Below, piece by piece: positions 8,059 to 63,065 of a stretch of 64,000 nt of DNA (position 1 is the first letter of the stretch; every line of letters begins with the position of its first letter). The notes under the pieces are model-generated. The model saw nothing but the letters and a program-made list of their open reading frames with translations. It was not told the origin of the DNA and made no database searches. A program made the translations under genes and the position numbers. Source of the DNA: Opitutia bacterium (GTDB lineage: Bacteria; Verrucomicrobiota; Verrucomicrobiia; Opitutales; Opitutaceae); the NCBI GenBank assembly GCA_016187945.1, contig JACPIT010000006.1:186001-250000 (forward strand). The letters run 5' to 3'.

Positions 8059-8150
8059 GTAGGGCCGGCTTCAGCCGGCCCATCTGCGGCAACGTTCGGC
8101 ATCCATGGCCGCGAGCGAAGACGCCACTGGCCCGGCTGAAGCCGGACCTT
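8059..8150. repeat. REPIN-like element, CCGGCTTCAGCCGG family
   Basis: The left arm begins GTAGGGCCGGCTTCAGCC and the right arm is its inverted copy (GGCTGAAGCCGG), with about 46 bp between. Each arm is itself palindromic. The terminal CTAC has decayed to CTTC. A short tandem run (CACGGATTG repeated) lies just to its left. Confidence 0.85.
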
Positions 8151-8170
8151 CCGTTTTCCTCGCGAGCAAA

Positions 8171-8265
8171 GTAGCGCCGGTCTCCGACCGGCGAAGTTGA
8201 AGTCCCTGCCGCGAACCCCAAGCGCGAGCGCGGCTGCATTCCGGCCAGTCACAGACTGGCCCTAC
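8171..8265. repeat. REPIN-like element, CCGGTCTCCGACCGG family
   Basis: It begins GTAGCGCCGGTC and ends GACTGGCCCTAC; both arms are self-complementary. The two arms differ at several positions (CGGTC versus CCAGTC), so they may derive from different family members. Confidence 0.85.
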
Positions 8266-8292
8266 CCCAAGGCGCCTACTGCCGAGCGCGAC

Positions 8293-8793
8293 CTATTCCT
8301 TTCGTTTCTGCTCCGCGATTGCAGCATCCAAAAACCGCCGTGCCCGTCGCTGATAGAATCCCGAGAGTGATATCGCCATCGCGAGCAGTGCGAGCATCGC
8401 TCCACCGACCGCCGGGCGCGACGTCATGACAAATCCGTCGCGAGTGACGATTCCAAGCCACGCGGCACCGCAGACCACGGAAGCGAACAATGCCGGAAAA
8501 AAATACCATCCGCTCGGCTTGCGGCCTCGCTTGGTCACGCAGTTCCACCATGAGATCGCTTTCAATTTTCCGCCTTCACGTCTTCCGACCACCACGACGT
8601 AGTCACCCGCATGAACGAGGAACGCGCCGTCTTTCGACCGAACGTTCACCACCGTATCGTGAATTGTGAACTCTACTTCGCTGATCGACGACGGTGCTCC
8701 GAAAATTTCAGAGAGGATGCGCGTCGAGATGCACTCCGCGCGGCCGCGCAGGACGGTGAGTCCTCTACCGCTGGCCTGGCTCTTCTCCGTCAC
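8293..8793 (-). CDS. Small membrane protein coupled to the FAD oxidase
   Basis: A 166-residue protein in two parts: a soluble N-terminal half (about residues 1-85) rich in beta-strand patterns (FTIHDTVVNVRSKDG, GDYVVVVGRR) that looks like a small OB-type barrel, and two hydrophobic spans (about 95-150) followed by a basic tail. No family is recognised. Its GTG start overlaps the TGA of the upstream oxidase gene in a GTGA tetranucleotide (8790-8793), strong evidence for translational coupling. It may anchor or assist the oxidase at the membrane, but that is inference from position only. Confidence 0.72.
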   Translation of the reverse strand: MTEKSQASGRGLTVLRGRAECISTRILSEIFGAPSSISEVEFTIHDTVVNVRSKDGAFLVHAGDYVVVVGRREGGKLKAISWWNCVTKRGRKPSGWYFFPALFASVVCGAAWLGIVTRDGFVMTSRPAVGGAMLALLAMAISLSGFYQRRARRFLDAAIAEQKRKE

Positions 8794-10241
8794 TTGTGAT
8801 CCCACGGGAACGACACCTGAAGCTTCGTGAATTTCCAGATGCGCACCGGCTCGAACATTTTTCCTGGATTGCAGATGCCCTTCGGATCGAGCGCGCGCTT
8901 CACCGCTTGCATCGCCTTCACCTGCGCGGGCGAGTGCTGGATGCGCAGGAATGGCGTCTTCGCCAGACCGATGCCGTGCTCGCCGGAGATCGCGCCGCCG
9001 AGCGCGACGACGGTTTCCATCAGCTTCTGCACGGCGTCCTCGGCGCGCTTCGCTTCGGCGGCGTCGGCGCGGTGATACATGATGTTCACGTGCAGATTGC
9101 CGTCGGCGAGATGGCCAAAGGTCGGGATCGCGAGCTTCGCGCTGCGCTTCAGGCCGGCGAGGAAGCGTGCGAACTTCTCGTAGCTGCGCATCGGCACGAC
9201 GATGTCCTCGTTCAGCTTCGAGTCGCCGAGCTCGAACATCGCGCCCGAGCACTTGCGGCGCACGGCCCAGAGTTGCTCGGCCTCTTCGCGGCTCTTCGCT
9301 TCGCGAAAACCGAGCGAGTGCTCCTGCGCCCACGCGAGCACGGTCGCCTTCACGTCCTCGATCTCCGCAGCGCCACCGGCGAATTCGAGCAGGATCACCG
9401 GGCGACCGGCCTGACCGGGGAAGATTGTCGTCTTCATCGCGCGCTCGGCGCAGACGACGCTCTCGCGGTCGAGAAACTCGCAGATCGCCGGCACGACGCG
9501 CTGGCGGAAGAGCGCCTTCGCGGCCTTCAACGCACTCACTTCGTCCGCGAACGACGTCAGCAGCGTCCAACGCGCGGCGGGCTGCGGCAGGAGCTTCAGC
9601 ACCGCGCCGGTCACGATGCCGAGCATGCCTTCGCTGCCGATCCAGAGATCGCGCAGGTTGAAGCCTGCGGAAAATTTCTTCGTCGCCGTGCCCCACTCCA
9701 CGAACTCGCCGGTCGGCAGGAAGCCGCGCAGCGCCACGACGAAGTCGCGCGTCACGCCGTATTTGCCGCCGTGCATGCCGCCGGCGTTGCAGGCGATGTT
9801 GCCGCCGATGGTGCAGTAAGCCTTCGACGACGGATCGAGCGGGAAAAACCAGCCGAGCTTCGCCGCGGCGTCCTGGATCGCCTGCGTCGTCGCGCCGGCG
9901 TGCGCCGTGGCGAGGCCGGCGTCGGCGTCGACGGCGACTTTGTTCAGCGCGAGCATGTCGACGACCCAGCCGCCGCGCACCGGCGCCGCCGAGCCCATGA
10001 GCGTGGTGCCGCGACCGCGCACGGTCACCGGCACCCGATGCCGGTTCGCGAGTTCGAGCACGACGCCGATTTCCTTTTCGGCGCGCGGCTTGATGACCGC
10101 CGCGGGCATGAACGAGACCTTGCTGCTGTCGAACGAAGCCGCGAAACGGCCCTTCTCCGAAACGTCCACGCGCGCCCCGAGGCGGCGTTTCAACTCACGA
10201 GTGGCGGCGGCGTATTTCTCCTTCATGGAAGGCGAACGCAT
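8790..10241 (-). CDS. FAD-linked oxidase, GlcD / D-lactate dehydrogenase type
   Basis: About 483 residues with the two-domain layout of the vanillyl-alcohol-oxidase/GlcD superfamily: an N-terminal FAD-binding PCMH domain (RGRGTTLMGSAAPVRGG around residue 85; the FAD pyrophosphate segment CTIGGNIACNAGG around 150) and a C-terminal cap (FGHLADGNLHVN around 400, containing the metal-binding His pair; SGEHGIGLAKTPFL around 440). Such enzymes oxidise 2-hydroxyacids (glycolate, D-lactate) to 2-oxoacids. No GlcE/GlcF partner or fused iron-sulfur domain is present, so it is a stand-alone form. The start MRSPSMKEKY is chosen over an upstream extension that runs into a REPIN. Two other hydroxyacid dehydrogenases follow divergently. 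Confidence 0.92.
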   Translation of the reverse strand: MRSPSMKEKYAAATRELKRRLGARVDVSEKGRFAASFDSSKVSFMPAAVIKPRAEKEIGVVLELANRHRVPVTVRGRGTTLMGSAAPVRGGWVVDMLALNKVAVDADAGLATAHAGATTQAIQDAAAKLGWFFPLDPSSKAYCTIGGNIACNAGGMHGGKYGVTRDFVVALRGFLPTGEFVEWGTATKKFSAGFNLRDLWIGSEGMLGIVTGAVLKLLPQPAARWTLLTSFADEVSALKAAKALFRQRVVPAICEFLDRESVVCAERAMKTTIFPGQAGRPVILLEFAGGAAEIEDVKATVLAWAQEHSLGFREAKSREEAEQLWAVRRKCSGAMFELGDSKLNEDIVVPMRSYEKFARFLAGLKRSAKLAIPTFGHLADGNLHVNIMYHRADAAEAKRAEDAVQKLMETVVALGGAISGEHGIGLAKTPFLRIQHSPAQVKAMQAVKRALDPKGICNPGKMFEPVRIWKFTKLQVSFPWDHK

Positions 10242-10315
10242 ACGCACGCCCGCGCGTCCGCGCAAGCGCCGCGACAGCGTCCGTGCGTCAATGCGGTGCG
10301 GTGTTCCGGTTCGTC

Positions 10316-10408
10316 GTATTTCCGGCTTCAGCCGGACCAGTTCGATCCACACTTTCCGCATTCAGCGTCCGCGCGAACGTCCTATGGTCCGGCTGAAGCC
10401 GGACCTAC
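10316..10408. repeat. REPIN-like element, CCGGCTTCAGCCGG family
   Basis: The left arm reads GTATTTCCGGCTTCAGCC (a degenerate GTAG head) and the right arm ends GAAGCCGGACCTAC. It lies in the divergent intergenic space between the GlcD-like gene and the hydroxyacid dehydrogenase, where it must overlap or adjoin promoters. Confidence 0.85.
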
Positions 10409-10522
10409 CGCCAGCAACCCGCCGTTATCTGCGCCGTCAACAATGCGACCGACATCCCGCCGGGCGCGGTGCACAATCGTTTTGAACCGCGCCGCCGGGC
10501 GTGTTGGCTCGCGGGCCTCCCC

Positions 10523-11473: not shown

Positions 11474-11496
11474 ATTCCGACTCTGGGCCGGAATTC

Positions 11497-11662
11497 AAAG
11501 CTCCAACATCCAAGCTCCAAATTCCAAAGAATCACCAAGCCAAATGAACCACGGAGACACGAAGACACGAAACCGGCAGACCTCTTTGTGCCTTGGTGTC
11601 TTTGTGGTTCATTTCTGAGTTTTTGAGTTTCTCTGGAGTTTGGATGTTGGAGCTTGGAGCTT
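11497..11662. repeat. Nested pair of inverted low-complexity repeats
   Basis: The outer arms (AAGCTCCAACATCCAAGCTC at left; TGGATGTTGGAGCTTGGAGC at right) enclose a second inverted pair (CACGGAGACACGAAGACACG with GCCTTGGTGTCTTTGTGG). The arms are made of degenerate repeated words rather than one clean palindrome. It fills the gap before the next gene. Confidence 0.8.
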
Positions 11663-11718
11663 TCCCCCGCTTGGAGCTTTCCCCATCCCGCACCCGTCTA
11701 TCACCCACCCTATCGAAA

Positions 11719-12819: not shown

Positions 12820-12820
12820 G

Positions 12821-12932
12821 GTAGCGCCAGTCTCCGACTGGCGGCAAAAGACTCCCGCAGCGTGCGCGTCACCGACCAGCGAACACGGGCACGCGCGAGC
12901 ACGAGCTGTCGCCGGTCAAAGACCGGCGCTAC
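12821..12932. repeat. REPIN-like element, GCCGGTC family
   Basis: It starts GTAGCGCCAGTC one nucleotide after the dehydrogenase stop codon and ends GACCGGCGCTAC. The arms are about 23 bp with a 66-bp spacer. Confidence 0.88.
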
Positions 12933-13025
12933 GTAGGTCCGGCTTCAGCCGGACCAGTTGCATCCGCGCATGCCGAGGTGCTCCTCGACTCGGAACTCTG
13001 ATGGGCCGGCTGAAGCCGGCCCTAC
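12933..13025. repeat. REPIN-like element, CCGGCTTCAGCCGG family
   Basis: It starts GTAGGTCCGGCTTCAGCC immediately after the previous element and ends GAAGCCGGCCCTAC immediately before the stop codon of the fusion gene on the other strand. The two tandem elements fill the whole convergent gap between two genes. Confidence 0.88.
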
Positions 13026-16676: not shown

Positions 16677-16737
16677 GTAGCGCGGTGCTTCAGCCCGCCC
16701 TGAAAGTCCACCGGTGCGGGCTAAAGCACCGCACTAC
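16677..16737. repeat. REPIN-like element, GCGGTGCTTCAGCC family
   Basis: It begins GTAGCGCGGTGCTTCAGCCC and ends AAGCACCGCACTAC. First of three elements lying between the fusion gene and the Toprim-like gene. Confidence 0.88.
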
Positions 16738-16760
16738 TCCGGAGTTCGCCGGCGTGGACT

Positions 16761-16834
16761 GTAGGAGCGGCTTTATGCCGCGATCCGAACGCGGCGCGCG
16801 CAGCGCACCAATCGCGGCGTAAAGCCGCTCCTAC
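16761..16834. repeat. REPIN-like element, GGAGCGGCTTTACGCCGC family
   Basis: It begins GTAGGAGCGGCTTTATGCCG and ends GTAAAGCCGCTCCTAC. A copy of the same family (18980-19054) lies on the other side of the ATPase/Toprim cassette. Confidence 0.88.
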
Positions 16835-16858
16835 AACTCTCGCGAGCGGCGGTTCGGA

Positions 16859-16919
16859 GTAGCGCGGTGCTTCAGCCCGCGATTGCGACTCCTCAGTGCG
16901 GGCTAAAGCACCGCACTAC
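16859..16919. repeat. REPIN-like element overlapping the 3' end of the Toprim-like gene
   Basis: It begins GTAGCGCGGTGCTTCAGCCC and ends AAGCACCGCACTAC. Its right arm encodes the last five codons and the stop of the minus-strand gene ending at 16903, so the present C-terminus (GSAVL) is repeat-derived. Confidence 0.88.
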
Positions 16920-18894: not shown

Positions 18895-18955
18895 GTAGCG
18901 CGGTGCTTCAGCCCGCGCGGGAGAGTTTTCAGCGCGGGCTGAAGCACCGCGCTAC
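18895..18955. repeat. REPIN-like element, GCGGTGCTTCAGCC family
   Basis: It begins GTAGCGCGGTGCTTCAGCCC and ends AAGCACCGCGCTAC. Same family as 16677-16737 and 16859-16919 on the opposite side of the ATPase/Toprim cassette. Confidence 0.88.
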
Positions 18956-18979
18956 TCCGAGCCCTCGCGCGCGGGAGTT

Positions 18980-19054
18980 GCAGGAGCGGCTTTACGCCGC
19001 GATTTTTTGCGCAACCGATGCCGCGCTCGGATCGCGGCGTAAAGCCGCTCCTAC
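18980..19054. repeat. REPIN-like element, GGAGCGGCTTTACGCCGC family
   Basis: It begins GCAGGAGCGGCTTTACGCCG (degenerate GTAG head) and ends GTAAAGCCGCTCCTAC. Same family as 16761-16834. Confidence 0.87.
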
Positions 19055-27436: not shown

Positions 27437-27675
27437 GTCGGAGCGGAAGCCGTGAGGCTTTCGCGGATGATCGAAAATTCCGCAGTTGAAACGCGGAGAG
27501 CGCAGAGGACGCGGAGTAGAACGCGGGAAAATCCGTCCCCACGAAGGTCTCACCTGGCGGCTGAAGGGGCGCGGCGCGGAACGATCGCGGTTTCTCCTCT
27601 GTGTTCTCCGCGTCCTCCGCGTTTCCACGGCGTTTTTCTGGATGATGAGCCGCGAAATTCTGACGAATTCCGCTA
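27437..27675. repeat. REPIN-like element interrupted by a second inverted repeat
   Basis: The outer arms (GAGCGGAAGCCGTGAGGC at left; GAAATTCTGACGAATTCCGC at right) are the two ends of the intact 62-bp element seen at 36143-36204. Here they are 170 bp apart because a different inverted repeat (ACGCGGAGAGCGCAGAGGAC with TCTCCGCGTCCTCCGCGT) sits between them (about 27482-27649). The 463-bp gap shows no gene. Confidence 0.82.
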
Positions 27676-30198: not shown

Positions 30199-30636
30199 TC
30201 AGTTCTTCAGCGCCGACTTCGGCACGCGTTTGACGGTGATAAAGTTCGCGCGGAAGAGTTCGTCCATGAGCTGGCGCGTCGCCGCCGGGATGCGCTGGAC
30301 CAGGTCGTCGAGCGGAGGGAGCGACTTCTTGTCGTCCGGGTCCGTTTCGGCCGCGGCGGCGCGGCTTGGCGCGGCCGGCGCGCTGACGCTTTGCTCGCGT
30401 TGCTCGGCCAAAAACGCGGACTCTTCGCCATCGGTCGGTCCGATGGGCGCACCTTCGTCGAAGCTGCCTTCCAGTAGCGGCGGTCTATGACCGCCGTCGG
30501 AGGCGTTGGGATCATCGGATCGGCGGTCATAGACTGCCGCGACAGACTCCTCTTCCCCACCCGACTGGCCGATCGCTGACGGCTGATCGGCGATCGCCGC
30601 CGTGCCGTTAGGCGCCGGCCTCAGTCGTTTTTTTTT
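30199..30636 (-). CDS. dnaX: DnaX tau-specific C-terminal extension, reached by -1 frameshift
   Basis: Reading frame open from the A9 run in dnaX (30628-30636) to a TAA... stop at 30199, one frame behind the annotated dnaX stop. It contains no ATG or GTG and no start before a TTG at 30411, yet encodes protein-like sequence: a Gly/Ala/Glu linker, then the compact helical end [20 protein letters not shown] and a basic tail ([11 protein letters not shown]). This is what is expected of a tau domain IV/V extension made by slippage on the A run, giving a long form of about 521 residues beside the 380-residue form. A REPIN (30474-30542) is translated within it. The frameshift is inferred from sequence, not measured. 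Confidence 0.7.
30474..30542. repeat. REPIN-like element inside the dnaX tau region, CGGCGGTC family
   Basis: It begins GTAGCGGCGGTCTATGACCG and its right arm is CGGTCATAGACTGCC, ending GCGAC in place of GCTAC. Same family as 32064-32132 and 59149-59217, but located in translated sequence if tau is made. Confidence 0.82.
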
Positions 30637-31763
30637 AACGGGTCGTCCGGCAGGCTCTCGGCCAGCGTGGCGATTTCCTTGATCAGACTGTCGATCGCGC
30701 GCGCACGGCTGGCTTCGACGGCTTTCAAGAGGGCCACTTCAAAATTGATCTTCTCCGACAGGCCGTGCTTCACGCCGCCCTCGCCTTCGCGCAGCGCGTC
30801 GAGGAGGCGCGTGAGCTGCTCGGTCGACATCGGCGTGCCGAGCGAAGCGCTGCTGCCACCCTTCGCGATGGCGTCGAGCAGCGACGTGCGCAGGTGCGCC
30901 TGCAAATCGACAAGCATCCGGTAAAGGTCGCGGCCGTTCTCGTCGCACTCGTCGACGATGCGGACGAGTTTCTTGTGGTCGCCGGCGGCGAGCGCGCTGG
31001 CGAGGTCGGCGATCGTCGCGGCGGAAACGAGGCCGTAGACGTCGAGCACGTCCGCTTCGCCGATCTCGGCGCCGCAGAACGAAATCATCTGGTCGAAGAT
31101 CGATTGCGCGTCGCGCATGCCGCCGTCGGCCATGCGGGCGATGCTTTGGAGCGCCTCGTCGCTGACTTTGATCTGCTCCGCGCCGGCGATTTTCTTGAGG
31201 CGTTGCACGATCAGCTCCGTCGGGATCGGCTTCAGGTCGAAGCGCTGGCAACGCGAGATGATCGTCGGCAGCACCTTTTGCACGTCCGTCGTGGCGAAGA
31301 TAAACTTCACGTGCTCCGGCGGCTCCTCGAGCGTCTTCAGCAGCGCGTTGAACGCCGCGGCCGAGAGCATGTGCACTTCGTCGATGATGTAGACCTTGAA
31401 CTTCCCTTGCGCGGGCGCGTAGCGGACGGTGTCGCGGAGCTCGCGGACTTGCTCGACGCCGTTGTTCGACGCACCGTCGATCTCGATCACGTCGAGGCAG
31501 GAGCCTTCGGCGATGGACTTGGCGATCGGGTCTTCCGGGTCGAAGTCGGCCTTCGGGCCGTCGGTGACGTTGAGGGCCTTGGCGAAAATGCGGGCGGTGC
31601 TCGTCTTGCCTGTGCCGCGCGGGCCGACGAAGAGGTAGGCGTGCGCGATGCGCTGGCGGCCGATGGCGTTCCTCAGCGTCCGGACCACGTGGTCCTGCCC
31701 CACGACATCGTCGAAGGTTTGGGGCCGCCACTTGCGGGCGATGACTTGATAGGCGCCGGACAC
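30621..31763 (-). CDS. dnaX: DNA polymerase III subunit gamma (short DnaX product)
   Basis: Clamp-loader ATPase; the 0-frame product is 380 residues. Walker [10 protein letters not shown] near residue 48, Walker [11 protein letters not shown] near 128, sensor-1 IFATTD near 158, arginine-finger SRCQRFDL near 172, sensor-2 GGMRDAQS near 218, followed by the domain III collar. The zinc module found in many DnaX proteins (four Cys between Walker A and Walker B) is replaced by a short Asp/Pro-rich loop with one Cys. The gene ends CCG-TTA, nine A, C-GAC-TGA: the A9 run is a slippery site that allows a longer tau product. It is preceded by the SRP RNA gene on the same strand. Confidence 0.96.
30628..30636 (-). 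promoter_or_regulatory. A9 slippery sequence for dnaX frameshifting
   Basis: Nine consecutive A residues on the minus strand, read as TTA-AAA-AAA-AAC in frame 0, two codons before the TGA. A -1 slip (or RNA-polymerase slippage adding one A) enters the open frame that runs to 30199. An A-run at this place in dnaX is the known arrangement in Thermus (transcriptional slippage), and A-AAA-AAG in E. coli (ribosomal). A GC-rich palindromic stretch (GGCGATCGCC) follows about 30 nt downstream. Confidence 0.75.
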
Positions 31764-31769
31764 GCAGGA

Positions 31770-31860
31770 GTTGAAGTTGAAGGTTGAAGTTTAAGTCGAG
31801 TCGAGGAGCGGAAGCCAAGTAATCGTTTCGATGGCTTCAACTTCAACTTTCAACTTCGAC
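31770..31860. repeat. Inverted low-complexity repeat (TTGAAGG words)
   Basis: Left arm GTTGAAGTTGAAGGTTGAAG, right arm CTTCAACTTCAACTTTCAAC, followed by a GC hairpin (GCGCCGC-GAG-CGGCGC). The same word plus GC-hairpin arrangement occurs inside sucB and lpdA. Confidence 0.8.
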
Positions 31861-31885
31861 GGCGCCGCGAGCGGCGCAAAAAATA

Positions 31886-32063: not shown

Positions 32064-32132
32064 GCAGCGGCGGTCTATGACCGCCGGCCTCCCTATTTCC
32101 GTGCTTCGTCGGCGGTCACAGACCGCCGCTAC
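32064..32132. repeat. REPIN-like element, CGGCGGTC family
   Basis: It begins GCAGCGGCGGTCTATGACCG (degenerate GTAG head) and ends CACAGACCGCCGCTAC; 69 bp long. Confidence 0.87.
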
Positions 32133-33646: not shown

Positions 33647-33710
33647 GTGGAACGCGTTGACCTCAACGCGTTCGCAGGACGAGCGCATTGGGGGCAATGC
33701 GCTCCGCCTC
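33647..33710. repeat. REPIN-like element, GGAACGCGTTGACCTCAACG family
   Basis: It begins GTGGAACGCGTTGACC and ends AATGCGCTCCGCCTC; the right arm is diverged. Related to 44240-44299 and 60943-61015. Confidence 0.8.
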
Positions 33711-34903: not shown

Positions 34904-35012
34904 GACGAGTTGAGAGTTGAGGGTTGAGCGTTGAGAGTTCAACCACAAGGTCACAGTTCCCCGGCCGCGCGGCCGGCTCGTCTGCTCTCAACTCTTAGCT
35001 CTCAACTCTCAA
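34904..35012. repeat. Inverted low-complexity repeat (TTGAGAG words)
   Basis: Left arm GTTGAGAGTTGAGGGTTGAG, right arm CTCTTAGCTCTCAACTCTC, about 50 bp between. It fills the divergent gap between the lptF/G permease gene and rlmN, and its right edge touches the rlmN start codon. Confidence 0.82.
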
Positions 35013-35013
35013 C

Positions 35014-36138
<1,125 letters not shown>

Positions 36139-36142
36139 CCCC

Positions 36143-36204
36143 GTAGCGGAAGCCGTGAGGCTTTCGCCGATGCGCACCGGCGAAATTCTGACGAATTCCG
36201 CTAC
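36143..36204. repeat. REPIN-like element, GCGGAAGCCGTGAGGC family (intact copy)
   Basis: It begins GTAGCGGAAGCCGTGAGGC and ends ACGAATTCCGCTAC; 62 bp, four bases after the rlmN stop codon. The interrupted copy is at 27437-27675. Confidence 0.85.
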
Positions 36205-37987: not shown

Positions 37988-38036
37988 GGAGGGCGCGCGT
38001 CCCCGCGCGCCGCGGCGCGGCCGGGCCGAGCCCTCC
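37988..38036. repeat. REPIN-like element, GGAGGGCGCGCGTCCCCGCG family
   Basis: It begins GGAGGGCGCGCGTCCCCGCG and ends GGCCGAGCCCTCC with almost no spacer. Same family as the outer arms at 51776-51935. Confidence 0.75.
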
Positions 38037-41273: not shown

Positions 41274-41366
41274 AATCTTTCTCTTCCCTCTTTCTCTTAC
41301 TCTTACTCCCCCCGCGAGCCGCGCCGGACGGATTGAAGAGAAAGAGAAAGATTAAGAAGAAAGAGT
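41274..41366. repeat. Inverted low-complexity repeat (CTTTCTCTTCC words)
   Basis: Left arm ATCTTTCTCTTCCCTC and TTTCTCTTACTC, right arm GAAGAGAAAGAGAAAGATTA. It occupies the sucA-sucB gap; a close relative lies in the sucB-lpdA gap. Confidence 0.8.
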
Positions 41367-42651: not shown

Positions 42652-42750
42652 AAATCTTTCTCTTTCCTCTTTCTCTTAATCTTTCTCCCCGACGCGCGTC
42701 GCGCAACCGGTGAGATTGAAGAGAAAGAGAAAGAGAAAGAGGAAAGATTT
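42652..42750. repeat. Inverted low-complexity repeat (AGAAAGAG words)
   Basis: Left arm ATCTTTCTCTTTCCTCTTTC, right arm GAGAAAGAGAAAGAGAAAG. Its right end stops one base before the lpdA ATG and supplies the purine-rich AGAGGAAAG that acts as ribosome binding site. Confidence 0.8.
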
Positions 42751-44201: not shown

Positions 44202-44226
44202 GTAGGGCGCACCGGCCCGGTGCGCC
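44202..44226. repeat. Single REP-like hairpin after lpdA
   Basis: It begins GTAGGGCGCACCGGCCCGGT and folds back on itself (GGCGCACCGG with CCGGTGCGCC). It starts two bases after the lpdA stop codon and may act as an RNA 3'-end structure. Confidence 0.7.
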
Positions 44227-44239: not shown

Positions 44240-44299
44240 GTGGAACGCGTTGACCTCAACGCGTTCTGCCTCGAGCGCGTTGAGGTCAATGCGCTCCAC
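44240..44299. repeat. REPIN-like element, GGAACGCGTTGACCTCAACG family
   Basis: It begins GTGGAACGCGTTGACC and ends CAATGCGCTCCAC; compact, 60 bp. The rest of the 355-bp gap to 44555 contains a GCGAGGAGCGCAGC-type stretch and no gene that I can support. Confidence 0.85.
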
Positions 44300-45488: not shown

Positions 45489-45542
45489 GGTAGGGGCGAA
45501 CCGTCCCGGTGAGCCACGGCTCGGCGAGACGCCTCGCCCTAC
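45489..45542. repeat. REPIN-like element, GTAGGGGCGAACCG family
   Basis: It begins GTAGGGGCGAACCGTCCCGG and ends GACGCCTCGCCCTAC. A single-arm low-complexity stretch (GATTCGCGTTCATTCGCGGG and CGTATATTTCGTGG words) follows before the HAD gene. Confidence 0.75.
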
Positions 45543-45666: not shown

Positions 45667-46344
45667 ATGAAGAAACTCATCCTCTGGGACATCGACGGCA
45701 CCCTCATCCGCACGAACCGCGCGGGCATCGTCGCGCTCGTGCGCGCGTTCGCGCAGTTGCACGGACGCGAGCCCGACATGGCGTCGATCGAAGTCTCCGG
45801 CCGCACCGATCGCTGGATCATCAGCCGCATGCTCGAGCACCACGGCATGGAACCGACCGCGCACAACATCCACGCGATCCTCGAAGGTTACCTGCAGCTT
45901 CTCCAAGGCGAGATAGTCGCGCGCCCCGGCCGCGTGCTGCCGGGCGTGCTCGAGTTGCTCGAGACGCTCCACCACCGCGCCGACGTCGTGCAGGCGCTGC
46001 TCACCGGCAACGTCGAGCGCGGCGCCCGCATCAAGCTGGAGCACTACCGCGCGTGGCACTACTTCGCCTTCGGCGCGTTTGGCGACGACAGCCCGCTGCG
46101 CAACGATCTCGGCCCGCACGCGCTGCGCCGCGCCAAGGAACGGCACGAAATCGATTTCCGGCCCGAACGCACGTTCGTGATCGGCGACACGCCGCACGAC
46201 ATCGAGTGCGGCAAAGTCATCGGCGCGCGCACGATTGCCGTGGCCACCGGCAACTTCACCGTCGAACAACTCGCCGCGCACGCGCCGACGGCGGTGTTCG
46301 CCGACTTCGCCGACACGACGGCGCTGCTCCGCGTGCTCGAGTAG
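45667..46344 (+). CDS. HAD-superfamily hydrolase (phosphoglycolate phosphatase-like)
   Basis: 225-residue HAD phosphatase. Motif I is WDIDGTLIRTN (nucleophile Asp 8 and Asp 10), the cap follows, motif II is LLTGN, motif III lysine lies in RIKLEHYR and motif IV is VIGDTPHDIECG. The fold and length fit PGP/beta-phosphoglucomutase-like enzymes; the substrate is undetermined. ATG at 45667. The stop codon TAG is part of the GTAG that begins a REPIN. Confidence 0.9.
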   Translation: MKKLILWDIDGTLIRTNRAGIVALVRAFAQLHGREPDMASIEVSGRTDRWIISRMLEHHGMEPTAHNIHAILEGYLQLLQGEIVARPGRVLPGVLELLETLHHRADVVQALLTGNVERGARIKLEHYRAWHYFAFGAFGDDSPLRNDLGPHALRRAKERHEIDFRPERTFVIGDTPHDIECGKVIGARTIAVATGNFTVEQLAAHAPTAVFADFADTTALLRVLE

Positions 46345-46460
46345 CGCCGGTTTTCAACCGGCGAAAGAACCTCGCGACCACGCGAACGTCCGTCTTTGCC
46401 GCAACCGCAAGTGACGGCGCATGCGGATCGTCCCGGACGCCGGTCAGAGACCGGCGCTAC
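46341..46460. repeat. REPIN-like element supplying the HAD gene stop codon
   Basis: It begins GTAGCGCCGGTTTTCAACCG at 46341; the TAG at 46342-46344 is the stop codon of the HAD gene. It ends GAGACCGGCGCTAC. Confidence 0.87.
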
Positions 46461-47424: not shown

Positions 47425-47452
47425 AACCCGATCACGGGCTGCAACGCTGTAG

Positions 47453-47479
47453 GGCGGGGTCGCCGACCCCGCCTTTTTT
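47453..47479 (+). terminator. Terminator of rpiB formed by a REP-like hairpin
   Basis: 9-bp stem GGCGGGGTC / GACCCCGCC with a 3-nt loop followed by six T. The stem is preceded by GTAG (47449-47452), so a REP-type unit has been used as terminator. Confidence 0.85.
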
Positions 47480-49008: not shown

Positions 49009-49074
49009 GTGGGAGGGGCTTTACGCCCCGGCGTTGGACGAACGCAGAGCGTCGGGGCGTAAAGCCCCTCCCAC
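49009..49074. repeat. REPIN-like element, GGAGGGGCTTTACGCCCC family
   Basis: It begins GTGGGAGGGGCTTTACGCCC and ends AAAGCCCCTCCCAC; lies between the dioxygenase and hydrolase genes. Confidence 0.87.
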
Positions 49075-51771: not shown

Positions 51772-51775
51772 AGCG

Positions 51776-51935
51776 GAGGGTCCGCGTCCCCGCGTGTCTT
51801 GTCCGCCCATCGGAGGCGGGGCCATCAGCCCCGCGGATTTCAAGGAGGCAACGCGTTCCTCGCGGGGCTGATGGCCCGCCTCCACCGTCACGCCACGAGC
51901 TTTGCCGTGCCGGCCCGCGAGGACGCTGGCCCTCC
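51776..51935. repeat. Nested REPIN-like elements
   Basis: The outer arms GGAGGGTCCGCGTCCCCGCG (51776-51795) and CGCGAGGACGCTGGCCCTCC (51916-51935) are inverted copies. Inside lies a complete second element (51812-51883), GGAGGCGGGGCCATCAGCCC to GGCTGATGGCCCGCCTCC. One element appears inserted into another. Confidence 0.82.
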
Positions 51936-51986: not shown

Positions 51987-52041
51987 GTAGCACCGGCGTC
52001 CAGCCGACCTCCGATACCTGCCGGCTGGAAGCCGGCGCTAC
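51987..52041. repeat. REPIN-like element, CCGGCGTCCAGCCG family
   Basis: It begins GTAGCACCGGCGTCCAGCC and ends GAAGCCGGCGCTAC, 55 bp. The 391-bp gap 51772-52162 contains only this and the nested elements at 51776-51935. Confidence 0.85.
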
Positions 52042-52162: not shown

Positions 52163-54241
52163 ATGACGTTTCCCGCGACTCCCACGCTGTTCCAACGCCG
52201 CGACCTCCGCCTCGCCGACCTCGAACGCGACCGCACCGCCACGCTCCTCCAACTCTACGCATGGATGCAGCTCGCGCGCACCGGCGACAACCGCATCCTC
52301 GACCTCTTCCGCCAAGGTCTCATCCGCGGCACCGTCACCGGCGGCCAGGGCAACGAAGCCCTCATTTGCCCGCTCGCGCTCCTCGCCGACAAATCCGTCG
52401 ACGTCGTCTCGTTCTCCCACCGCGGCTTCGGCGGCCACCTCATCTGGAGCGGACACCTTTGCGATCACCTCGCGCAATACTTCGCCAACTCCGGCAGCCC
52501 CACCAAAGCCCGCGAAGGCAACATCCACCACGGCGACCCCGCCGCGCGCAGCCTGCCGATGATTTCGCACCTCGGCATCATGCTCTCGAACGTCGTCGGT
52601 GCCGTCGACTCCCAGCGCCGCGCCGGCAAGCCCGCCGTCGGCTTCGCCTTCTTCGGCGACGGCTCCAGCTCCACCGGCGACATCCACGAATCGCTCAACC
52701 TCGCCGCCGTCCTCGGCGTGCCCGTCATCTTCGTCATCGAGAACAACGGCTACGCCTACTCGACGCCCTGCTCCGAACAATTCATCTCCGCCAACCTCCA
52801 CGACCGCGCCCGCGGCTACGGCATGGAAGGCTTCTCGATGGATTGCGCCGATCCGGAAAACGTCCTGCGCACGCTCGGCGCCGCGATCGACCGCGCCCGC
52901 AGCACTTCGCGCCCGATCCTGATCGAAGCCCGCACGTTCCGCCTGCGCGGCCACGCCGCCTACGACACCTGCGACTACATGCAGCCCGGTGAAGCCGAAG
53001 CGATCCTCGCCGAAGACCCGCTCCCGCGCTGGCACGCCAAGCTCGCCGCCGCCGGCCTCACGCGCGAACTCGACGCGATCGACGCCCAAGTCCGCGACTT
53101 CGTCGAAACCTCGATCAAGTCCGCGATGGCCCTCCCGCCCGTCACGCCCGACGGCATGCTCGCCGACCTCTTCGCTCCCGACGCCGCGCCGATGCCGTGG
53201 ACCCCGAGCCTCGACAGTGGAGGGCCGAGCTCCCGCGAGGCCGCAATCGAGAATCCAAAATCCAAAATCGAAAATCTCACGATGGCCCAGGCCATCAACC
53301 GCGCTCTCCGCAAAATCCTCGCCGAGCGCCCCGAATCGCTCGTCCTCGGCCAGGACATCGGCACCTACGGCGGCGCGTTCAAAGTCACCGAAGGTCTCCT
53401 GAAAGATTTCGGCCGCCCGCGCGTCCTCAGCACACCGCTCTGCGAATCCGCCTCCACCGGCTACGCCATCGGCCTCGCCAGCAACGGCCACCGCCCGATC
53501 GAGGAGTTCCAATTCGCCGACTTCGCGACCGACGCCACGACGCAGATCGTCCTCAACGCCGCGACGTATCACTTCCGCGCCGGCCAAAAAATCCCGCTCG
53601 TCTTCCGCTTCCCCTGCGGCGGCGGCCTCACCTTCGGCTCCTTCCACTCGCAGGAACTCGAGTCCGCGCTCCTCTCCTTCCCCGGCCTCAAAGCGCTCTA
53701 CCCGTCCACGCCGCAGGACGCCTTCAACGCCCTCCTCGCCGCCTACGAAGACGACAACCCCGTGATCGTGTTCGAGCACAAGGGCCTCTACCGCCGCGGC
53801 AAACACCCCGTGCAGTTCGACGCGAACTACCGCGACGTCTGGCAACCGCGCCACGTCCGCACGGGCGACTTCGCCACGATCGTCACCTACGGCGAGATGG
53901 TCCTGCACTGCACCGATGCCTGCCGCTATTTCGAGGAAGAATACGAGACGACCTTCGACCTCTTCGACCTGCGCGCGCTCTCGCCGCTGAAGCTCGACGC
54001 GATCAAAGCCTCCGTCGCACGCACCGGCCGCCTCGTCATCGTGCACGAAGGCCGCAAGACGCACGGCTTCGGCGCCGAACTCGTCGCACGCCTCACCGAA
54101 GAACAGTGGGGCCAGCTCAAAGCCGCCCCGCTCCGCATCGCCGCGCTGGACATTCCGGTCCCCTTCGCCCCCGAACTCGAAACCGTCTACCGCCCGAGCA
54201 AAGAAAAAATCATCGACGCCATCGCCGCGTGGATGGGCTGA
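52163..54241 (+). CDS. Fused alpha-beta E1 of a branched-chain or pyruvate-type 2-oxoacid dehydrogenase
   Basis: 692 residues joining both E1 chains. Alpha (about 1-340): thiamine-diphosphate motif GDGSSSTGDIHESLNLAAVL through VIENNGYAYSTP, phosphorylation-loop-like RGHAAYDTCDYMQPGE. Beta (about 372-692): LGQDIGTYGGAFKVTEGL, EFQFADFATDATTQIV, FRFPCGGGLTFGSFHSQELES and VIVFEHKGLYRR. The layout matches 2-oxoisovalerate dehydrogenase E1 more than PdhA/B, but the substrate is not proven. The inter-domain linker (about residues 350-371) is repeat-derived: a GTGGAGGG REP-like piece, then AAATCC-word repeats (53242-53275). No E2 follows. The last 185 bp are duplicated at 55350. Confidence 0.93.
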   Translation: MTFPATPTLFQRRDLRLADLERDRTATLLQLYAWMQLARTGDNRILDLFRQGLIRGTVTGGQGNEALICPLALLADKSVDVVSFSHRGFGGHLIWSGHLCDHLAQYFANSGSPTKAREGNIHHGDPAARSLPMISHLGIMLSNVVGAVDSQRRAGKPAVGFAFFGDGSSSTGDIHESLNLAAVLGVPVIFVIENNGYAYSTPCSEQFISANLHDRARGYGMEGFSMDCADPENVLRTLGAAIDRARSTSRPILIEARTFRLRGHAAYDTCDYMQPGEAEAILAEDPLPRWHAKLAAAGLTRELDAIDAQVRDFVETSIKSAMALPPVTPDGMLADLFAPDAAPMPWTPSLDSGGPSSREAAIENPKSKIENLTMAQAINRALRKILAERPESLVLGQDIGTYGGAFKVTEGLLKDFGRPRVLSTPLCESASTGYAIGLASNGHRPIEEFQFADFATDATTQIVLNAATYHFRAGQKIPLVFRFPCGGGLTFGSFHSQELESALLSFPGLKALYPSTPQDAFNALLAAYEDDNPVIVFEHKGLYRRGKHPVQFDANYRDVWQPRHVRTGDFATIVTYGEMVLHCTDACRYFEEEYETTFDLFDLRALSPLKLDAIKASVARTGRLVIVHEGRKTHGFGAELVARLTEEQWGQLKAAPLRIAALDIPVPFAPELETVYRPSKEKIIDAIAAWMG
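54056..54240. repeat. Left copy of a 185-bp direct duplication (3' end of the fused E1 gene)
   Basis: The last part of the E1 gene, from AAGACGCACGGCTTCGGC to its stop, recurs at 55350-55535 with roughly 90 percent identity. The DNA between carries a hypothetical gene and a toxin-antitoxin pair. Confidence 0.9.
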
Positions 54242-55535: not shown

Positions 55536-55570
55536 AGTAAATGTGCGGCTTGAATTCTCAGCGCCCCGCG

Positions 55571-59023: not shown

Positions 59024-59148
59024 CGAGAAACCGCCGCGCCCGACGCCCGACAACGGACTCGCCACGCGGCGCCCCGAAAGGAACCCGCCCGAGCCCGACG
59101 GCGCAAGACGATTGAGCCGCGGGCGGCGCACCTCACCGTTCTGGACTT

Positions 59149-59217
59149 GTAGCGGCGGTCTATGACCGCCGGCCGAGCGTCGCTCGCGTTTCGTCGGCGG
59201 TCATAGACCGCCGCTAC
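59149..59217. repeat. REPIN-like element, CGGCGGTC family
   Basis: It begins GTAGCGGCGGTCTATGACCG and ends CATAGACCGCCGCTAC, 69 bp, in the divergent gap between the CLC gene and kdsC. Confidence 0.9.
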
Positions 59218-59302
59218 AGAAAACGGGCGCGTCGCGCTCGCGCCCCGCGCGGTGAGTTTCAGATTGGCGTTGCCCCGCTGCGCACCCAACCTCCGCGTCA
59301 TC

Positions 59303-59848: not shown

Positions 59849-60363
59849 ACCGCAGCGACGACCATCACCGACGTGGGACAGCGCGCTTGCGCGCGCCCGT
59901 CCCGCGCGCGCAAGCGCGCTGCCCACAATGGGCGGCTCTGCTGGTCGCGTTTTTGGGGATCGCGGGATCGATTTGCGCGCAGACGACGACCCGCATCGCC
60001 ACCGACGCGCCGATCGTGAACTTCCGCCTGCCCACGTTCACGCCAGAAGGTTACCGCCAGTGGCTCGTGCGCGGCACCGAGGCGCGGCTCATCAGCACGA
60101 AGGAAATCGACATCCGCGAACTCACGCTGACCGTCTTCACCGCCGACGCGACCGACCGCATCGAGACGATGATCCTCAGCCCGAGCGCCAAAGTGCTGAC
60201 CGATTCGCAAGTCGTCTCCGGCCCCGGCACCATCCGCGTGATCCGCGACGACCTCGACGCCACCGGCGCGAACTGGACCTACGACCACAAGGAGAAAAGG
60301 GTTTCCATGCGCCAGAACGTGCGCGTAACGTTCCGCGCCGAATTGAAGAATTTCCTGCAATGA
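59845..60363 (+). CDS. lptC: LptC-like LPS export periplasmic bridge protein
   Basis: 172 residues. GTG start overlaps the kdsC stop (GTGA). A basic N-terminal segment that is encoded by a REPIN (residues about 10-27), one hydrophobic signal/anchor span (WAALLVAFLGIAGSICAQ) and a beta-jellyroll body of the LptC/OstA fold (TEARLISTKEIDIRELTLTVF, DRIETMILSPSAKVL, VSGPGTIRV). LptC passes LPS from LptB2FG to LptA. Identification rests on position between kdsC and lptA plus fold pattern. The lptA ATG overlaps its stop (ATGA). Confidence 0.82.
   Translation: MNRSDDHHRRGTARLRAPVPRAQARCPQWAALLVAFLGIAGSICAQTTTRIATDAPIVNFRLPTFTPEGYRQWLVRGTEARLISTKEIDIRELTLTVFTADATDRIETMILSPSAKVLTDSQVVSGPGTIRVIRDDLDATGANWTYDHKEKRVSMRQNVRVTFRAELKNFLQ
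59873..59926. repeat. REPIN-like element inside the lptC coding region
   Basis: It begins GTGGGACAGCGCGCTTGCGC and ends CAAGCGCGCTGCCCAC, 54 bp, in frame in the n-region of the LptC-like signal segment. Confidence 0.88.
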
Positions 60364-60908
60364 CGCTTCCCCGCCTCGCCCTGTTCCTCGCCGCGTTCGC
60401 CGGCTCGCTCTACGCGCAAAACGCCGAGACACAGCCCACGGTCATCGAGAGCGAGAAGCTCGACATGAAGAGCACCGACACGAAGACGACGTCGATCTTC
60501 GAGGGCAAAGTCGTCGTCACCGGCACGAACTTGAAGCTCACCTGCGACCGCCTCGAAGTCGTCGCGCTCCGCAACAAGGCCGACGCCGCCGCGACGATCG
60601 GCAAGGTCGAGCGCTTCGAATCGCTCGTGGCCGAAGGCAACGTCCACATCGTCCAAGGCGACCGCGAAGCCGCTTGCGGCAAAGCCGTCGTGCTCCCCGG
60701 CGACGACAAGATCACGCTCACCGACCGCCCCGTCGTCAGCGACCGCGGCGTGGGTTGGACGTGGACCGGCGACGAGTTGCTCCTCCTCCGCGGCGAGCGC
60801 CAGGTGCGCGGCACGAACGTGAAGATCGTCGGCCCGCCGGTGAAGGATCTCGGTTTCGACAAGGACAAGAAAGTCGAGCCCACGCCGGAGGCGCCGAAGC
60901 AGCCGTGA
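60360..60908 (+). CDS. lptA: LptA-like LPS transport protein (OstA domain)
   Basis: 182 residues with a signal peptide (LPRLALFLAAFAGSLYAQ) and an OstA/LptA jellyroll: VIESEKLDMKSTDTKTTSIFEG KV, NLKLTCDRLEVV, FESLVAEGNVHIVQGDREAACGKAVVLPGDDKITL, TDRPVV. LptA forms the periplasmic filament that carries LPS to LptDE. It overlaps lptC by ATGA. The C-terminus is a Lys/Pro-rich tail. A REPIN separates it from lptB. Confidence 0.9.
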   Translation: MTLPRLALFLAAFAGSLYAQNAETQPTVIESEKLDMKSTDTKTTSIFEGKVVVTGTNLKLTCDRLEVVALRNKADAAATIGKVERFESLVAEGNVHIVQGDREAACGKAVVLPGDDKITLTDRPVVSDRGVGWTWTGDELLLLRGERQVRGTNVKIVGPPVKDLGFDKDKKVEPTPEAPKQP

Positions 60909-60942
60909 GCAGCGCGACCAACCCGGAACTCTGCGGCCGGAG

Positions 60943-61015
60943 GTGGAGCGCGTTCACCCCAACGCGCCTTCTCCGGGCGCGAACCGAGCAGCGCGTTGAG
61001 GTCAACGCGCTCCAC
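60943..61015. repeat. REPIN-like element, GGAGCGCGTTGACC family
   Basis: It begins GTGGAGCGCGTTCACCCC and ends GGTCAACGCGCTCCAC; lies in the lptA-lptB gap. Confidence 0.87.
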
Positions 61016-61038
61016 CTCGAGCAATCACGCATCCACGC

Positions 61039-61788
<750 letters not shown>

Positions 61789-61794
61789 GTAGCG

Positions 61795-61913
61795 AGGAGT
61801 GAGTAGCGGGTAGCGAGTAGTTCGCATCGCCTGTTCAAGTGAGCGCGAGCTTGTTCCCCGTCGCCGGTTCCCCTACTCACTACCCGCTACTCGCTACCCG
61901 CTACCCGCTACTT
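61795..61913. repeat. Inverted low-complexity repeat (GAGTAGCGGGTAGC words)
   Basis: Left arm GAGTAGCGAGGAGTGAGTAG and GCGGGTAGCGAGTAG, right arm CTACTCACTACCCGCTACTC followed by three CTACCCGCTAC-like repeats. It fills the lptB-hprK gap. Confidence 0.85.
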
Positions 61914-61924
61914 CTCCTGCCCCC

Positions 61925-62974
61925 ATGCCCACCAAAGCCATCAACGGCATCTCCGTCGCGCACTTCTACGAGACGTATAAGTCGAAGCTCCAGCTCGAGC
62001 TGCTCACCGGCGAGGAAGGCATGCACCGCCTCATCAAGGAGGGTTCGATCAACCGGCCGTCGCTCGCGCTCACGGGGTTCTTCAAATATTTCGCGATGAA
62101 ACGCATTCAGGTGCTCGGCGCGGCCGAGATGACGTTTCTGAAGACGCTCTCGCAACGGCAGCAGATCATCATTTTTCAGGAGATGGTGAAGCGCGGCATC
62201 CCGTGCCTCGTGCTCACGCGCAACTACAACGCCACGCACCCGATGCTCGCGGTGTCGCAGGAGATGCACCTGCCGATCTTCCGCACGCCGATGATCACGA
62301 TGAATTTCGTGAACGCCGCCACGCTGTGCGTCGACAACGAGTTCGCCCCCTCCGGCACCGAGCATGCGACGACGCTCGATATCAAAGGCATCGGCGTGAT
62401 GATCCGCGGCGACTCCGGCATCGGCAAATCCGAGTGCGCCCTCGCTCTCATCGAGCGCGGCCACTCGCTCGTGGCCGACGACCTCACCTGCATCCGCCTC
62501 GTCGACGAACGCGAGCTCACGGCCAGCTCGCGCGACCTCAACCGCGGCTACATGGAGTGCCGCGGCATCGGCATCATCAACATCGCCGAAATGTTCGGCG
62601 TGAAAAGCATCCGACTCGAAAAGCGCATCGACATGGTCGTGACGCTGAAGGAGTGGAGCGCCGACGTGGTCGAGGAGCGCACCGGCCTCGAGGAAAATTT
62701 CTACGAGATCCTCGGCATCAAGGTTCCGCACATCGAATTCTACGTGCGACCGGGCCGCGACATCGCCCGCCTCATCGAAGTCGCCGCGATGGTGCAGGCG
62801 TTGAAGAAAATGGGCCACGATCCCGCCAAGGATTTCAACGACCGCCTCATCGCGCATATGCAGGAGCAGGCCGTGCTGAAGACGACGACGCACAAGATCG
62901 CGTCCGAGTCGCGCGCGGCGCTCGCTCCGCAGGAATTCCCCGAAGACGAGCCGCTGCCGGAGAATCCGTCCTGA
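61925..62974 (+). CDS. hprK: HPr kinase/phosphorylase
   Basis: 349-residue bifunctional Ser-kinase/phosphorylase of HPr. N-terminal domain (1-135), Walker A GDSGIGKSECALALIERGH near residue 158, DDLTCIRLV and the HprK signature MECRGIGIINIAEMFGV near 205-220, then the C-terminal lid FYVRPGRDIARLIEVAAM. In Gram-negatives hprK often sits beside PTS or LPS genes, as here. ATG at 61925. Carbon-signalling function is family knowledge. Confidence 0.97.
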   Translation: MPTKAINGISVAHFYETYKSKLQLELLTGEEGMHRLIKEGSINRPSLALTGFFKYFAMKRIQVLGAAEMTFLKTLSQRQQIIIFQEMVKRGIPCLVLTRNYNATHPMLAVSQEMHLPIFRTPMITMNFVNAATLCVDNEFAPSGTEHATTLDIKGIGVMIRGDSGIGKSECALALIERGHSLVADDLTCIRLVDERELTASSRDLNRGYMECRGIGIINIAEMFGVKSIRLEKRIDMVVTLKEWSADVVEERTGLEENFYEILGIKVPHIEFYVRPGRDIARLIEVAAMVQALKKMGHDPAKDFNDRLIAHMQEQAVLKTTTHKIASESRAALAPQEFPEDEPLPENPS

Positions 62975-62995
62975 GGCTGTAGCCGATTGGGCCCG

Positions 62996-63065
62996 GTAGC
63001 AGCCGACGAAAGGAGGCTGTTCTCGTTCCGGCACCTAGCGTCAGCCTCCTCACGTCGGCTGCTAC
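62996..63065. repeat. REPIN-like element, GTAGCAGCCGACG family
   Basis: It begins GTAGCAGCCGACGAAAGGAG and ends CTCACGTCGGCTGCTAC; lies between hprK and rph. A further GTAGCCGATT stretch is directly to its left. Confidence 0.8.

What the first reader, a model, noticed from the sequence alone, without database searches (positions are those of the whole stretch)
8059..63065. A REPIN-like network with many families, all with GTAG/GTGG/GGAG heads
Seen: more than twenty elements share one plan: a tetranucleotide head (mostly GTAG), a palindromic arm, a short spacer, an inverted arm and the complementary tail (mostly CTAC). At least nine arm sequences exist. Known: REPs with a 5' GTAG and doublets in inverted orientation (REPINs) are moved by RAYT (TnpA-REP) transposases acting in trans. 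Inferred: this genome has several co-existing REPIN families, with no RAYT inside the window. Such diversity in 64 kb is remarkable.
Basis: partly seen in the sequence, partly recalled or inferred. Interest (0 to 1): 0.8.

Follow-up and report, generated by a model that had tools for sequence, protein, structure and literature searches.

The report
Twelve transposase-matched REPIN families, one genome
The window is dotted with tiny mirror-image DNA repeats (REPINs) of many kinds, and the same bacterial genome carries twelve different single-gene transposases, each sitting beside its own matching kind of repeat, so one cell hosts an unusually large set of parallel repeat-spreading systems of a known type.

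Summary
The window has 52 REP arms of 16 families: 20 complete head-out REPINs in one scan, and three more pairs with a decayed arm or outside the consensuses. The genome (Opitutaceae-like, 5.47 Mb) holds about 2,550 such units by extrapolation; family A has 311 copies against 0 for the reversed pattern. No RAYT lies in the window, but two profile rounds converge on 12 elsewhere. Each has a REP family of its own beside it: 10 of 12 on both sides in the strict scan, against 22 of 20,000 random intervals. Ten of the 16 window families have their RAYT here. Over 68 RAYT/REP pairs the distances correlate (r 0.585, 0 of 9,999 permutations); the head changes 8 times on the RAYT tree (shuffled mean 23.6).

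Apparently new are the number, GGAG heads in two RAYT clades, and family D: 215 copies, no RAYT of its own found, nearly always beside C REPINs. How D spreads is unresolved.

The parts
8059..8151 (.). REPIN family F (GTAGGGCCGGCTTCAGCCGGCC); no RAYT found in this assembly, A-clade type
   Evidence: F-like REPs flank an A-clade RAYT in L017
8171..8265 (.). REPIN family A (GTAGCGCCGGTCnnnGACCGGCG); RAYT at G000:C15:244594
10316..10408 (.). REPIN family F
12821..12932 (.). REPIN family A, directly abutting the next F REPIN
12933..13025 (.). REPIN family F
16677..16919 (.). D-C-D arrangement: REPIN D 16677-16737, REPIN C 16761-16834, REPIN D 16859-16919
18895..19054 (.). D-C arrangement: REPIN D 18895-18955, REPIN C 18980-19054 (RAYT of C at G000:C15:188191)
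27440..27466 (+). single arm of family P
30474..30543 (.). REPIN family B (GTAGCGGCGGTCnnnGACCGCCG; one compensated stem pair from A)
32064..32132 (.). REPIN family B
33647..33672 (+). single arm of family E
36143..36204 (.). REPIN family P with a decayed second arm (RAYT at G000:C1:327270)
37988..38011 (+). single arm of family H (GGAG head; RAYT at G000:C2:209514)
44202..44226 (+). single arm of family R (RAYT at G000:C8:168097)
44240..44299 (.). REPIN family E (GTGGAGCGCGTTGACCTCAACGCGCT; RAYT at G000:C9:497962)
45518..45542 (-). single arm of family K (RAYT at G000:C11:5711)
46341..46460 (.). REPIN family A
47449..47473 (+). single arm of family U (GTAGGGCGGGGTCGCCGACCCCGCC); near-identical REPs flank RAYTs L073 and L136 in same-genus genomes; no such RAYT found here
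49009..49074 (.). REPIN family M (GTGGGAGGGGCTTTACGCCCCGGC), C-clade type; its REP (one base different) flanks RAYT L111 of a same-genus genome
49728..49803 (.). REPIN family A
51775..51935 (.). H arms 51775 (+) and 51912 (-) with a G pair (51812-51883, GGAG head) between them
51987..52041 (.). REPIN with S-like arms (GTAGCGCCGGCTTCCAGCCGGC)
53219..53242 (+). single arm of family L inside predicted gene 52163-54241 (RAYT of L at G000:C12:569835)
59149..59217 (.). REPIN family B
59873..59927 (.). REPIN family Q (GTGGGACAGCGCGCTTGCGCGCGC; RAYT at G000:C12:361775)
60943..61015 (.). REPIN family E
62996..63065 (.). REPIN family O (GTAGCAGCCGACGTGAGGAGGCTG; RAYT at G000:C2:366234)
63914..63937 (-). 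single arm of family H

Best explanation
These are REP elements and their head-out doublets (REPINs). They are non-autonomous units that single-copy RAYT (TnpA-REP, HuH/Y1) transposases recognise as single-stranded hairpins and spread in trans. This genome holds twelve such RAYT/REP systems side by side, each RAYT beside its own REP family and presumably acting mainly on it. Families without a RAYT here (B, D, F, G, M, S, U) are sub-families, or what is left of systems whose RAYT was lost or lies in an unassembled part; five of the seven (all but G and S) resemble the REPs of a known RAYT clade. Shown: RAYT identity, one family per RAYT, copy excess, family-typical spacers, mostly intergenic placement, co-diversification with relatives. 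Inferred: actual mobilisation, and cleavage next to the head.
For: 12 RAYTs by two converging profile rounds; 12 of 12 match NF047646; the profile hits the solved TnpA-REP chain 4er8 at 2.4e-20; HxH, the Y and Y---NP are invariant in 12 of 12. Each RAYT has its own family nearby; 10 of 12 on both sides within 450 bp, against 22 of 20,000 random intervals. Before the last four RAYT loci were read I noted that orphans D, E, O and perhaps B, F, G would flank them: E and O did, as did P (an orphan I had not named) and a new family R; D, B, F and G did not. Copy numbers: A 311, reversed control 0; D 215, control 0. Pairs within 150 bp: 149 head-out, 13 head-in, 3 same-strand, with family-typical spacers. 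414 of 464 units outside predicted genes; densest between convergent genes, sparsest between divergent ones. RAYT-REP Mantel r 0.585, 0 of 9,999; 0.558 with the head removed; 0.528 for the own 12 alone, 1 of 9,999. Head changes 8 on the tree, shuffled mean 23.6, minimum 17 of 2,000.
Against: No movement was observed: no empty site against a relative, no expression data. H and E RAYTs have a clean copy on one side only in the strict scan, though searches show a diverged E copy upstream of its RAYT. For 17 of 69 RAYTs the nearest RAYT's REP is not among the three nearest REPs (L071 and L132 rank worst). The orphan families D and B are not more decayed than families that own a RAYT, which 'RAYT lost long ago' does not predict. 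The assembly is 95.7% complete, so further RAYTs may be missing. Several family consensuses were chosen from the same sequences in which they were counted.
Confidence: 0.9

Rival explanations
1. Only the families with a RAYT are living systems; the rest (B, D, F, M, U) are sub-family drift or orthoswitch relics of the same RAYT clades, so 'many families' overstates the number of independent systems.
For: B differs from A by one compensated stem pair; F-like and D-like REPs flank A-clade RAYTs elsewhere (L017, L018), and M-like and U-like REPs flank RAYTs of same-genus genomes. The orthoswitch model is published (PMC3686654 section 8).
Against: Even counted strictly there are 12 RAYTs with 12 families, spread over the main clades of the tree.
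Confidence: 0.5
2. Family D has no transposase of its own and spreads only joined to C: either a C-D composite moves as a unit by C's RAYT, or D inserts only at the ends of C REPINs.
For: 17 of 18 complete D REPINs in 853 kb stand 22-26 bp from a C REPIN; 23 C-D neighbours, 0 of 5,000 label shuffles; 65 exact junctions genome-wide. Of 29 exact D REPINs, 22 have a clear C, 1 a degraded C at the usual distance, 1 a C about 60 bp away, 3 a C remnant read by eye, 1 only C's outer arm (by eye), 1 none.
Against: D and C spacers do not co-vary (Mantel r -0.11, n 29) and C lies in both orientations relative to D (9 to 15, 5 unclear), which speaks against simple unit amplification. D's RAYT may lie in the missing part of the genome; a RAYT with D-like REPs exists in L018.
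Confidence: 0.5
3. The hairpins are ordinary transcription terminators or RNA-level signals multiplied by selection for function, not mobile DNA.
For: They lie mostly between convergent or tandem genes (148 and 228 of 405) and seldom between divergent ones (29).
Against: Separate sequence families with family-typical spacers, one family per RAYT, and co-diversification with RAYTs; terminators need none of these.
Confidence: 0.04

Closest known systems
GTAG repeats and REPtrons including Opitutus terrae (Di Nocera et al. 2013, PMC3733652; sections 5 and 16 and passages seen; figures not held)
   Same: Same phylum, several GTAG families coexisting in one genome, repeat-specific REPtrons in species with several families, a GTGG-headed family, dimers, downstream-of-gene bias.
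   Different: A different genome; 12 RAYT/REP systems resolved one by one; GGAG-headed families (the word GGAG is not in that paper's main text; its Figure 1 consensuses could not be seen).
RAYT/REP classes of fluorescent pseudomonads and stenotrophomonads (Nunvar et al. 2013, PMC3686654; abstract, sections 6 and 8 read)
   Same: REP classes defined by their RAYT, orthogroups, orphan classes when the RAYT is lost or the flanking REP switches.
   Different: They report two to three RAYTs per strain on average and a maximum of four; here there are twelve.
Composite repeats in Pseudomonas putida and P. fluorescens: degenerate GTAG-1 units adjoined to unrelated stem-loops, hundreds of copies (PMC3733652 section 16)
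   Same: A GTAG-1-type unit (C also has a dinucleotide between head and stem) joined to a second palindrome in many copies.
   Different: Here both partners are complete REPINs, typical of two different RAYT clades; C also occurs alone, D almost never.
Escherichia coli TnpA-REP and its REPs (PMC8266576, passages seen; PDB 4er8)
   Same: HuH/Y1 protein; GTAG-type head plus hairpin recognised as single strand.
   Different: E. coli REPs have a bulge; here stems are mostly perfect, with K and D as exceptions (read by eye), and GTGG and GGAG heads occur.

Membership tests
REP/REPIN | Conserved 5' tetranucleotide next to a palindrome of 20-50 nt | tested here: met
   (head positions at least 75% conserved in the 18 families shown; GGAG in G, H, I, J, L is a variant of GTAG)
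REP/REPIN | Many copies per genome | tested here: met
   A 311, D 215, 107 exact C REPINs; small families such as U, J, M are estimated at only 10-29
REP/REPIN | Mostly intergenic | tested here: met
   414 of 464 units outside crude gene models that cover 82% of the sequence; R (6 of 9 inside) and J (7 of 10 inside) are exceptions
REP/REPIN | Inverted doublets with conserved spacing | tested here: met
   e.g. C 26 nt in 21 of 33, D 15 in 9 of 18, F 49 in 4 of 6, G 28 in 3 of 3; K, P and I are mostly single (I has no head-out pair in 14 units)
REP/REPIN | Cognate RAYT beside copies of the family | tested here: met
   12 of 19 consensus families; not met for B, D, F, G, M, S, U in this assembly
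RAYT (TnpA-REP) | HuH motif, single catalytic tyrosine, Y---NP signature of class 2 | tested here: met
   invariant in 12 of 12; signature from PMC6006769 passages
RAYT (TnpA-REP) | Curated family model | tested here: met
   NF047646 hit by 12 of 12 at E up to 0.01; not all reach the 80-bit cut-off (two listed own places at 75.9 and 74.8 bits; three own places not listed)
RAYT (TnpA-REP) | REP-specific ssDNA cleavage | not testable with these tools
   needs purified protein
TIRtron/TIRYT (long terminal repeats instead of REPs) | Long terminal repeats unrelated to REPs beside the gene | tested here: inconclusive
   the L-family RAYT has a 91-nt repeat on both sides that contains a GGAG palindrome; the gene groups with the H clade
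CGTC repeats | CGTC tag at one end | tested here: not met
   the heads of the families counted here are GTAG, GTGG or GGAG; CGTC-tagged repeats were not searched for

The most novel reading that the evidence does not exclude
Family D is a REPIN that lives on another REPIN: 215 arm copies in this genome and none (at up to 2 mismatches) in 12 same-genus genomes, some of them incomplete; no RAYT of its own found in the assembly; and spread only when joined to the ends of C REPINs, using C's transposase or C's ends as its landing site. That would be a second-order parasite of a domesticated-transposase system.
Probability: 0.45. Interest if true: 0.68.

Novelty: new member of a known kind. Interest (0 to 1): 0.5.

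Why it matters
Twelve RAYT/REP pairs in one cytoplasm, and dozens more in sister genomes, are a natural specificity matrix. Which RAYT residues read which head, stem and loop can be asked from the 68 RAYT/REP pairs in hand. The two origins of the GGAG head on the RAYT tree test the published guide model of cleavage-site choice. The C-D arrangement asks whether REPINs of one RAYT clade can exploit another. None of this overturns the known picture of REPINs.

Tried and rejected
Rejected: (1) one RAYT serves all families; there are 12 RAYTs with 12 families. (2) E, O and P as RAYT-less orphans: the Pfam model PF01797 alone finds 8 RAYTs; a profile of those finds 4 more, and three of these carry E, O and P. 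(3) The simple-repeat pairs at 61789-61911 as a REPIN. (4) A C-D composite amplified unchanged as a block: spacers do not co-vary and orientation is mixed; not excluded, because spacers may evolve too fast.

Errors on the way: one search stopped on a file-name error; one search read L002 on the wrong strand (put right); the first consensus for L was wrong (0 hits) and was replaced. My note says 'prediction met'; that was too strong: of the families named (D, E, O, perhaps B, F, G) only E and O were found at the four new RAYTs.

Rows dropped: 26 of 64 relatives' loci had no tblastn hit at 1e-8; 22 of those were not passed on. One search examined 74 loci (12 own, 62 relatives). The strict rule found a REP pair in 58 of 74. 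Of the 16 without one, 4 low-scoring loci (L023, L024, L105, L115; 46-60 bits) were dropped; a relaxed rule without hairpin condition found a pair in 11 of the other 12 (not L103). So 69 pairs; L134 is the same locus as L072 and was removed, leaving 68.

Papers: PMC3686654 abstract and sections 6 and 8; PMC3733652 sections 5 and 16 and passages; PMC2817692, PMC8266576 and PMC6006769 passages only; PMC12306157 a word search without hits; others only as search listings. Not found in the held library: 'opitut' together with 'repetitive extragenic palindromic' (0 papers); 'rep sequences', 'reptron' and 'composite' together (0). One paper holds 'rep-associated tyrosine transposase' with 'verrucomicrobia' (PMC3733652). 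The library lacks most subscription papers.
Full report
What is there. The window is G000:C10:186001-250000 of a 5.47-Mb genome in 16 contigs, 95.7% complete. In a search that finds close relatives only, the two nearest named relatives of one of its RAYTs are an Opitutaceae MAG (61% identity) and Opitutus sp. GAS368 (56%). With 19 family consensuses the window holds 52 arms of 16 families; 40 of these arms form 20 complete head-out REPINs. Three more pairs have a decayed partner arm or fall outside the consensuses. A 560-kb sample of stretches spread over the contigs holds 261 units, so about 2,550 per genome by extrapolation; the window is about 1.7 times denser. A Markov copy of 621 kb gave 3 hits where the real sequence gave 328.

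Families are real units. In 853 kb of own sequence there are 149 head-out pairs within 150 bp, 13 head-in and 3 same-strand. Spacers are typical of each family: C 26 nt (21 of 33), D 15 (9 of 18, range 14-17), B 23 (5 of 11), A 48-49 (9 of 20), F 49 (4 of 6), E 21 (9) or 30 (7) of 23, G 28 (3 of 3), Q 7 (3 of 3). Base conservation mostly stops within a few bases of the head on the 5' side. By crude codon-usage gene models (82% coding), 414 of 464 units are outside genes. Of the 405 intergenic units with a gene on each side, 148 lie between convergent genes (25.7 kb), 228 between tandem genes (79.7 kb) and 29 between divergent genes (28.3 kb). This matches what is published for REPs (PMC3733652 abstract).

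The transposases. PF01797 finds 8 Y1 genes; a profile of those 8 finds 12, the weakest at E 1.1e-13; a profile of all 12 finds the same 12. All 12 match NF047646, REP-associated tyrosine transposase, at E up to 0.01, and the profile matches the solved TnpA-REP chain 4er8. Each has a family of its own next to it: A (C15:244594), C (C15:188191), E (C9:497962), H (C2:209514), I (C9:599110), J (C10:320763), K (C11:5711), L (C12:569835), O (C2:366234), P (C1:327270), Q (C12:361775), R (C8:168097). Before reading the last four loci I noted that orphan families D, E, O and perhaps B, F, G would flank them. E and O did, P and a new family R also turned up there, and D, B, F and G did not. In the strict scan 10 of 12 have the same family on both sides within 450 bp, against 22 of 20,000 random intervals; H and E show it on one side. 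Heads of the 12: GTAG six, GTGG two, GGAG four.

Co-diversification. Of 74 RAYT loci (12 own, 62 from relatives), 58 gave a flanking REP pair by the strict rule and 11 more by a relaxed rule; 4 low-scoring loci without a pair were dropped, L103 gave none, and one duplicate was removed, leaving 68. RAYT distance and REP distance correlate: r 0.585, 0 of 9,999 permutations reach it; r 0.558 without the head bases; r 0.400 among RAYT pairs at least 50% different; r 0.528 for the own 12 alone, 1 of 9,999. For 52 of 69 the nearest RAYT's REP is among the three nearest REPs; for 17 it is not. On a quick RAYT tree (20 of 65 inner branches at support 95 or more, 30 under 80) the head changes 8 times; shuffled labels need 23.6 on average, minimum 17. 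GGAG appears in two separate clades, H/L (8 rows, support 100) and I/J (4 rows, support 99). The own 12 are spread over the main clades, so they are not recent copies of one gene. The word GGAG is not in the main text of PMC3733652, PMC2817692 or PMC8266576 (figures not held). Nunvar gives GT[A/G]G.

Families without a RAYT here. A-clade RAYTs of relatives carry F-like (L017) and D-like (L018) REPs, and the four A-clade genes form one group (support 95). A C-clade RAYT of a same-genus genome carries M but for one base (L111), and RAYTs L073 and L136 carry U-like REPs. B is one compensated stem pair away from A. So five of the seven orphans resemble the REPs of a known RAYT clade; G and S do not. 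Loss of the RAYT or an orthoswitch, as proposed for Pseudomonas and Stenotrophomonas (PMC3686654 section 8), fits most of them. But B and D are no more decayed than families with a RAYT.

Family D. It has 215 copies at up to 2 mismatches here, none in 12 same-genus genomes (some incomplete), and 5 hits in three genomes of other genera. D REPINs stand beside C REPINs: 23 neighbour pairs within 80 bp, reached by 0 of 5,000 label shuffles (A-F has 5, reached by 8 of 5,000). 17 of 18 complete D REPINs in 853 kb are 22-26 bp from a C REPIN with a similar junction sequence. Genome-wide there are 65 exact junctions, 29 exact D REPINs and 107 exact C REPINs, reversed-pattern controls 0. Of the 29 D REPINs, 20 have an exact junction (comparing), 2 an approximate one and 1 a degraded C at the usual distance (L142). 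One has a C about 60 bp away (L147), 3 a C remnant that I read by eye (L143, L145, L148), 1 only C's outer arm, by eye (L144), and 1 nothing (L146). C REPINs without D within 90 bp are common (14 listed, though at least one has a decayed D beside it). Against a block that copies itself unchanged, D and C spacers do not co-vary (r -0.11, n 29; spacer-junction correlations are weak, 0.14 and 0.10) and C lies both ways round (9, 15, 5 unclear). I cannot tell composite transposition from targeted attachment of D at C ends, nor exclude a D-specific RAYT in the missing part of the assembly.

How common. In 145 genomes of the phylum (own included), 91 have an NF047646 match at E up to 0.001 and 46 have one over the curated cut-off; per-genome counts run up to 32, and 15 genomes besides this one have 12 or more. 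Those counts include matches below the cut-off. So RAYT richness is shared by part of this phylum, and 12 here is high, not unique. The survey of fluorescent pseudomonads and stenotrophomonads reports at most four per genome.

Verdict. The system is a new, unusually rich member of a known kind, with two details worth following: GGAG heads and the D-beside-C arrangement.

Noticed in passing
window 61789-61911, 31753-31877, 34908-35014, 41276-41364, 42652-42750, 27501-27621, 11542-11614: Inverted pairs whose arms are simple repeats (GTAGCGAG/GTAGCGGG heptamers, GTTGAAG, CTCTTTCT, CACGGAGACACG types), each a possible large hairpin; not REPs and not explained.
   Followed up: no
window 51775-51935: A G pair lies between two outward H arms, as if one REPIN had landed inside another; L013 8496-8570 likewise shows a C REPIN between what look by eye like decayed D arms.
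   Followed up: partly
L010 (G000:C10:320667-321287): The J-family RAYT lies among frames that look by eye like a type I restriction-modification operon, and its own open frame is extended at both ends by REP-encoded residues.
   Followed up: no
L127 and L140 (two same-genus genomes): RAYTs flanked by GTGGGAGCGAGCTTGCTCGCGAC, identical but for the last base to the cognate REP PF8 of Pseudomonas fluorescens Q8r1-96: transfer or convergence between phyla.
   Followed up: no
621 kb of own sequence: A longer repeat with the words GATCGTCTCCGCCGCG, GCCGCGGATTTGGAAT and TGGAATCAAGGCAAAG, 12 occurrences each, with no GTAG-type head listed.
   Followed up: no
L143 (G000:C9:634400-635100): A family-I-like palindrome (GATATTATATCGCC) seems by eye to have replaced most of a C REPIN beside D.
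   Followed up: no
window 53219-53242: An exact L-family arm inside predicted gene 52163-54241, a possible intragenic REP.
   Followed up: no
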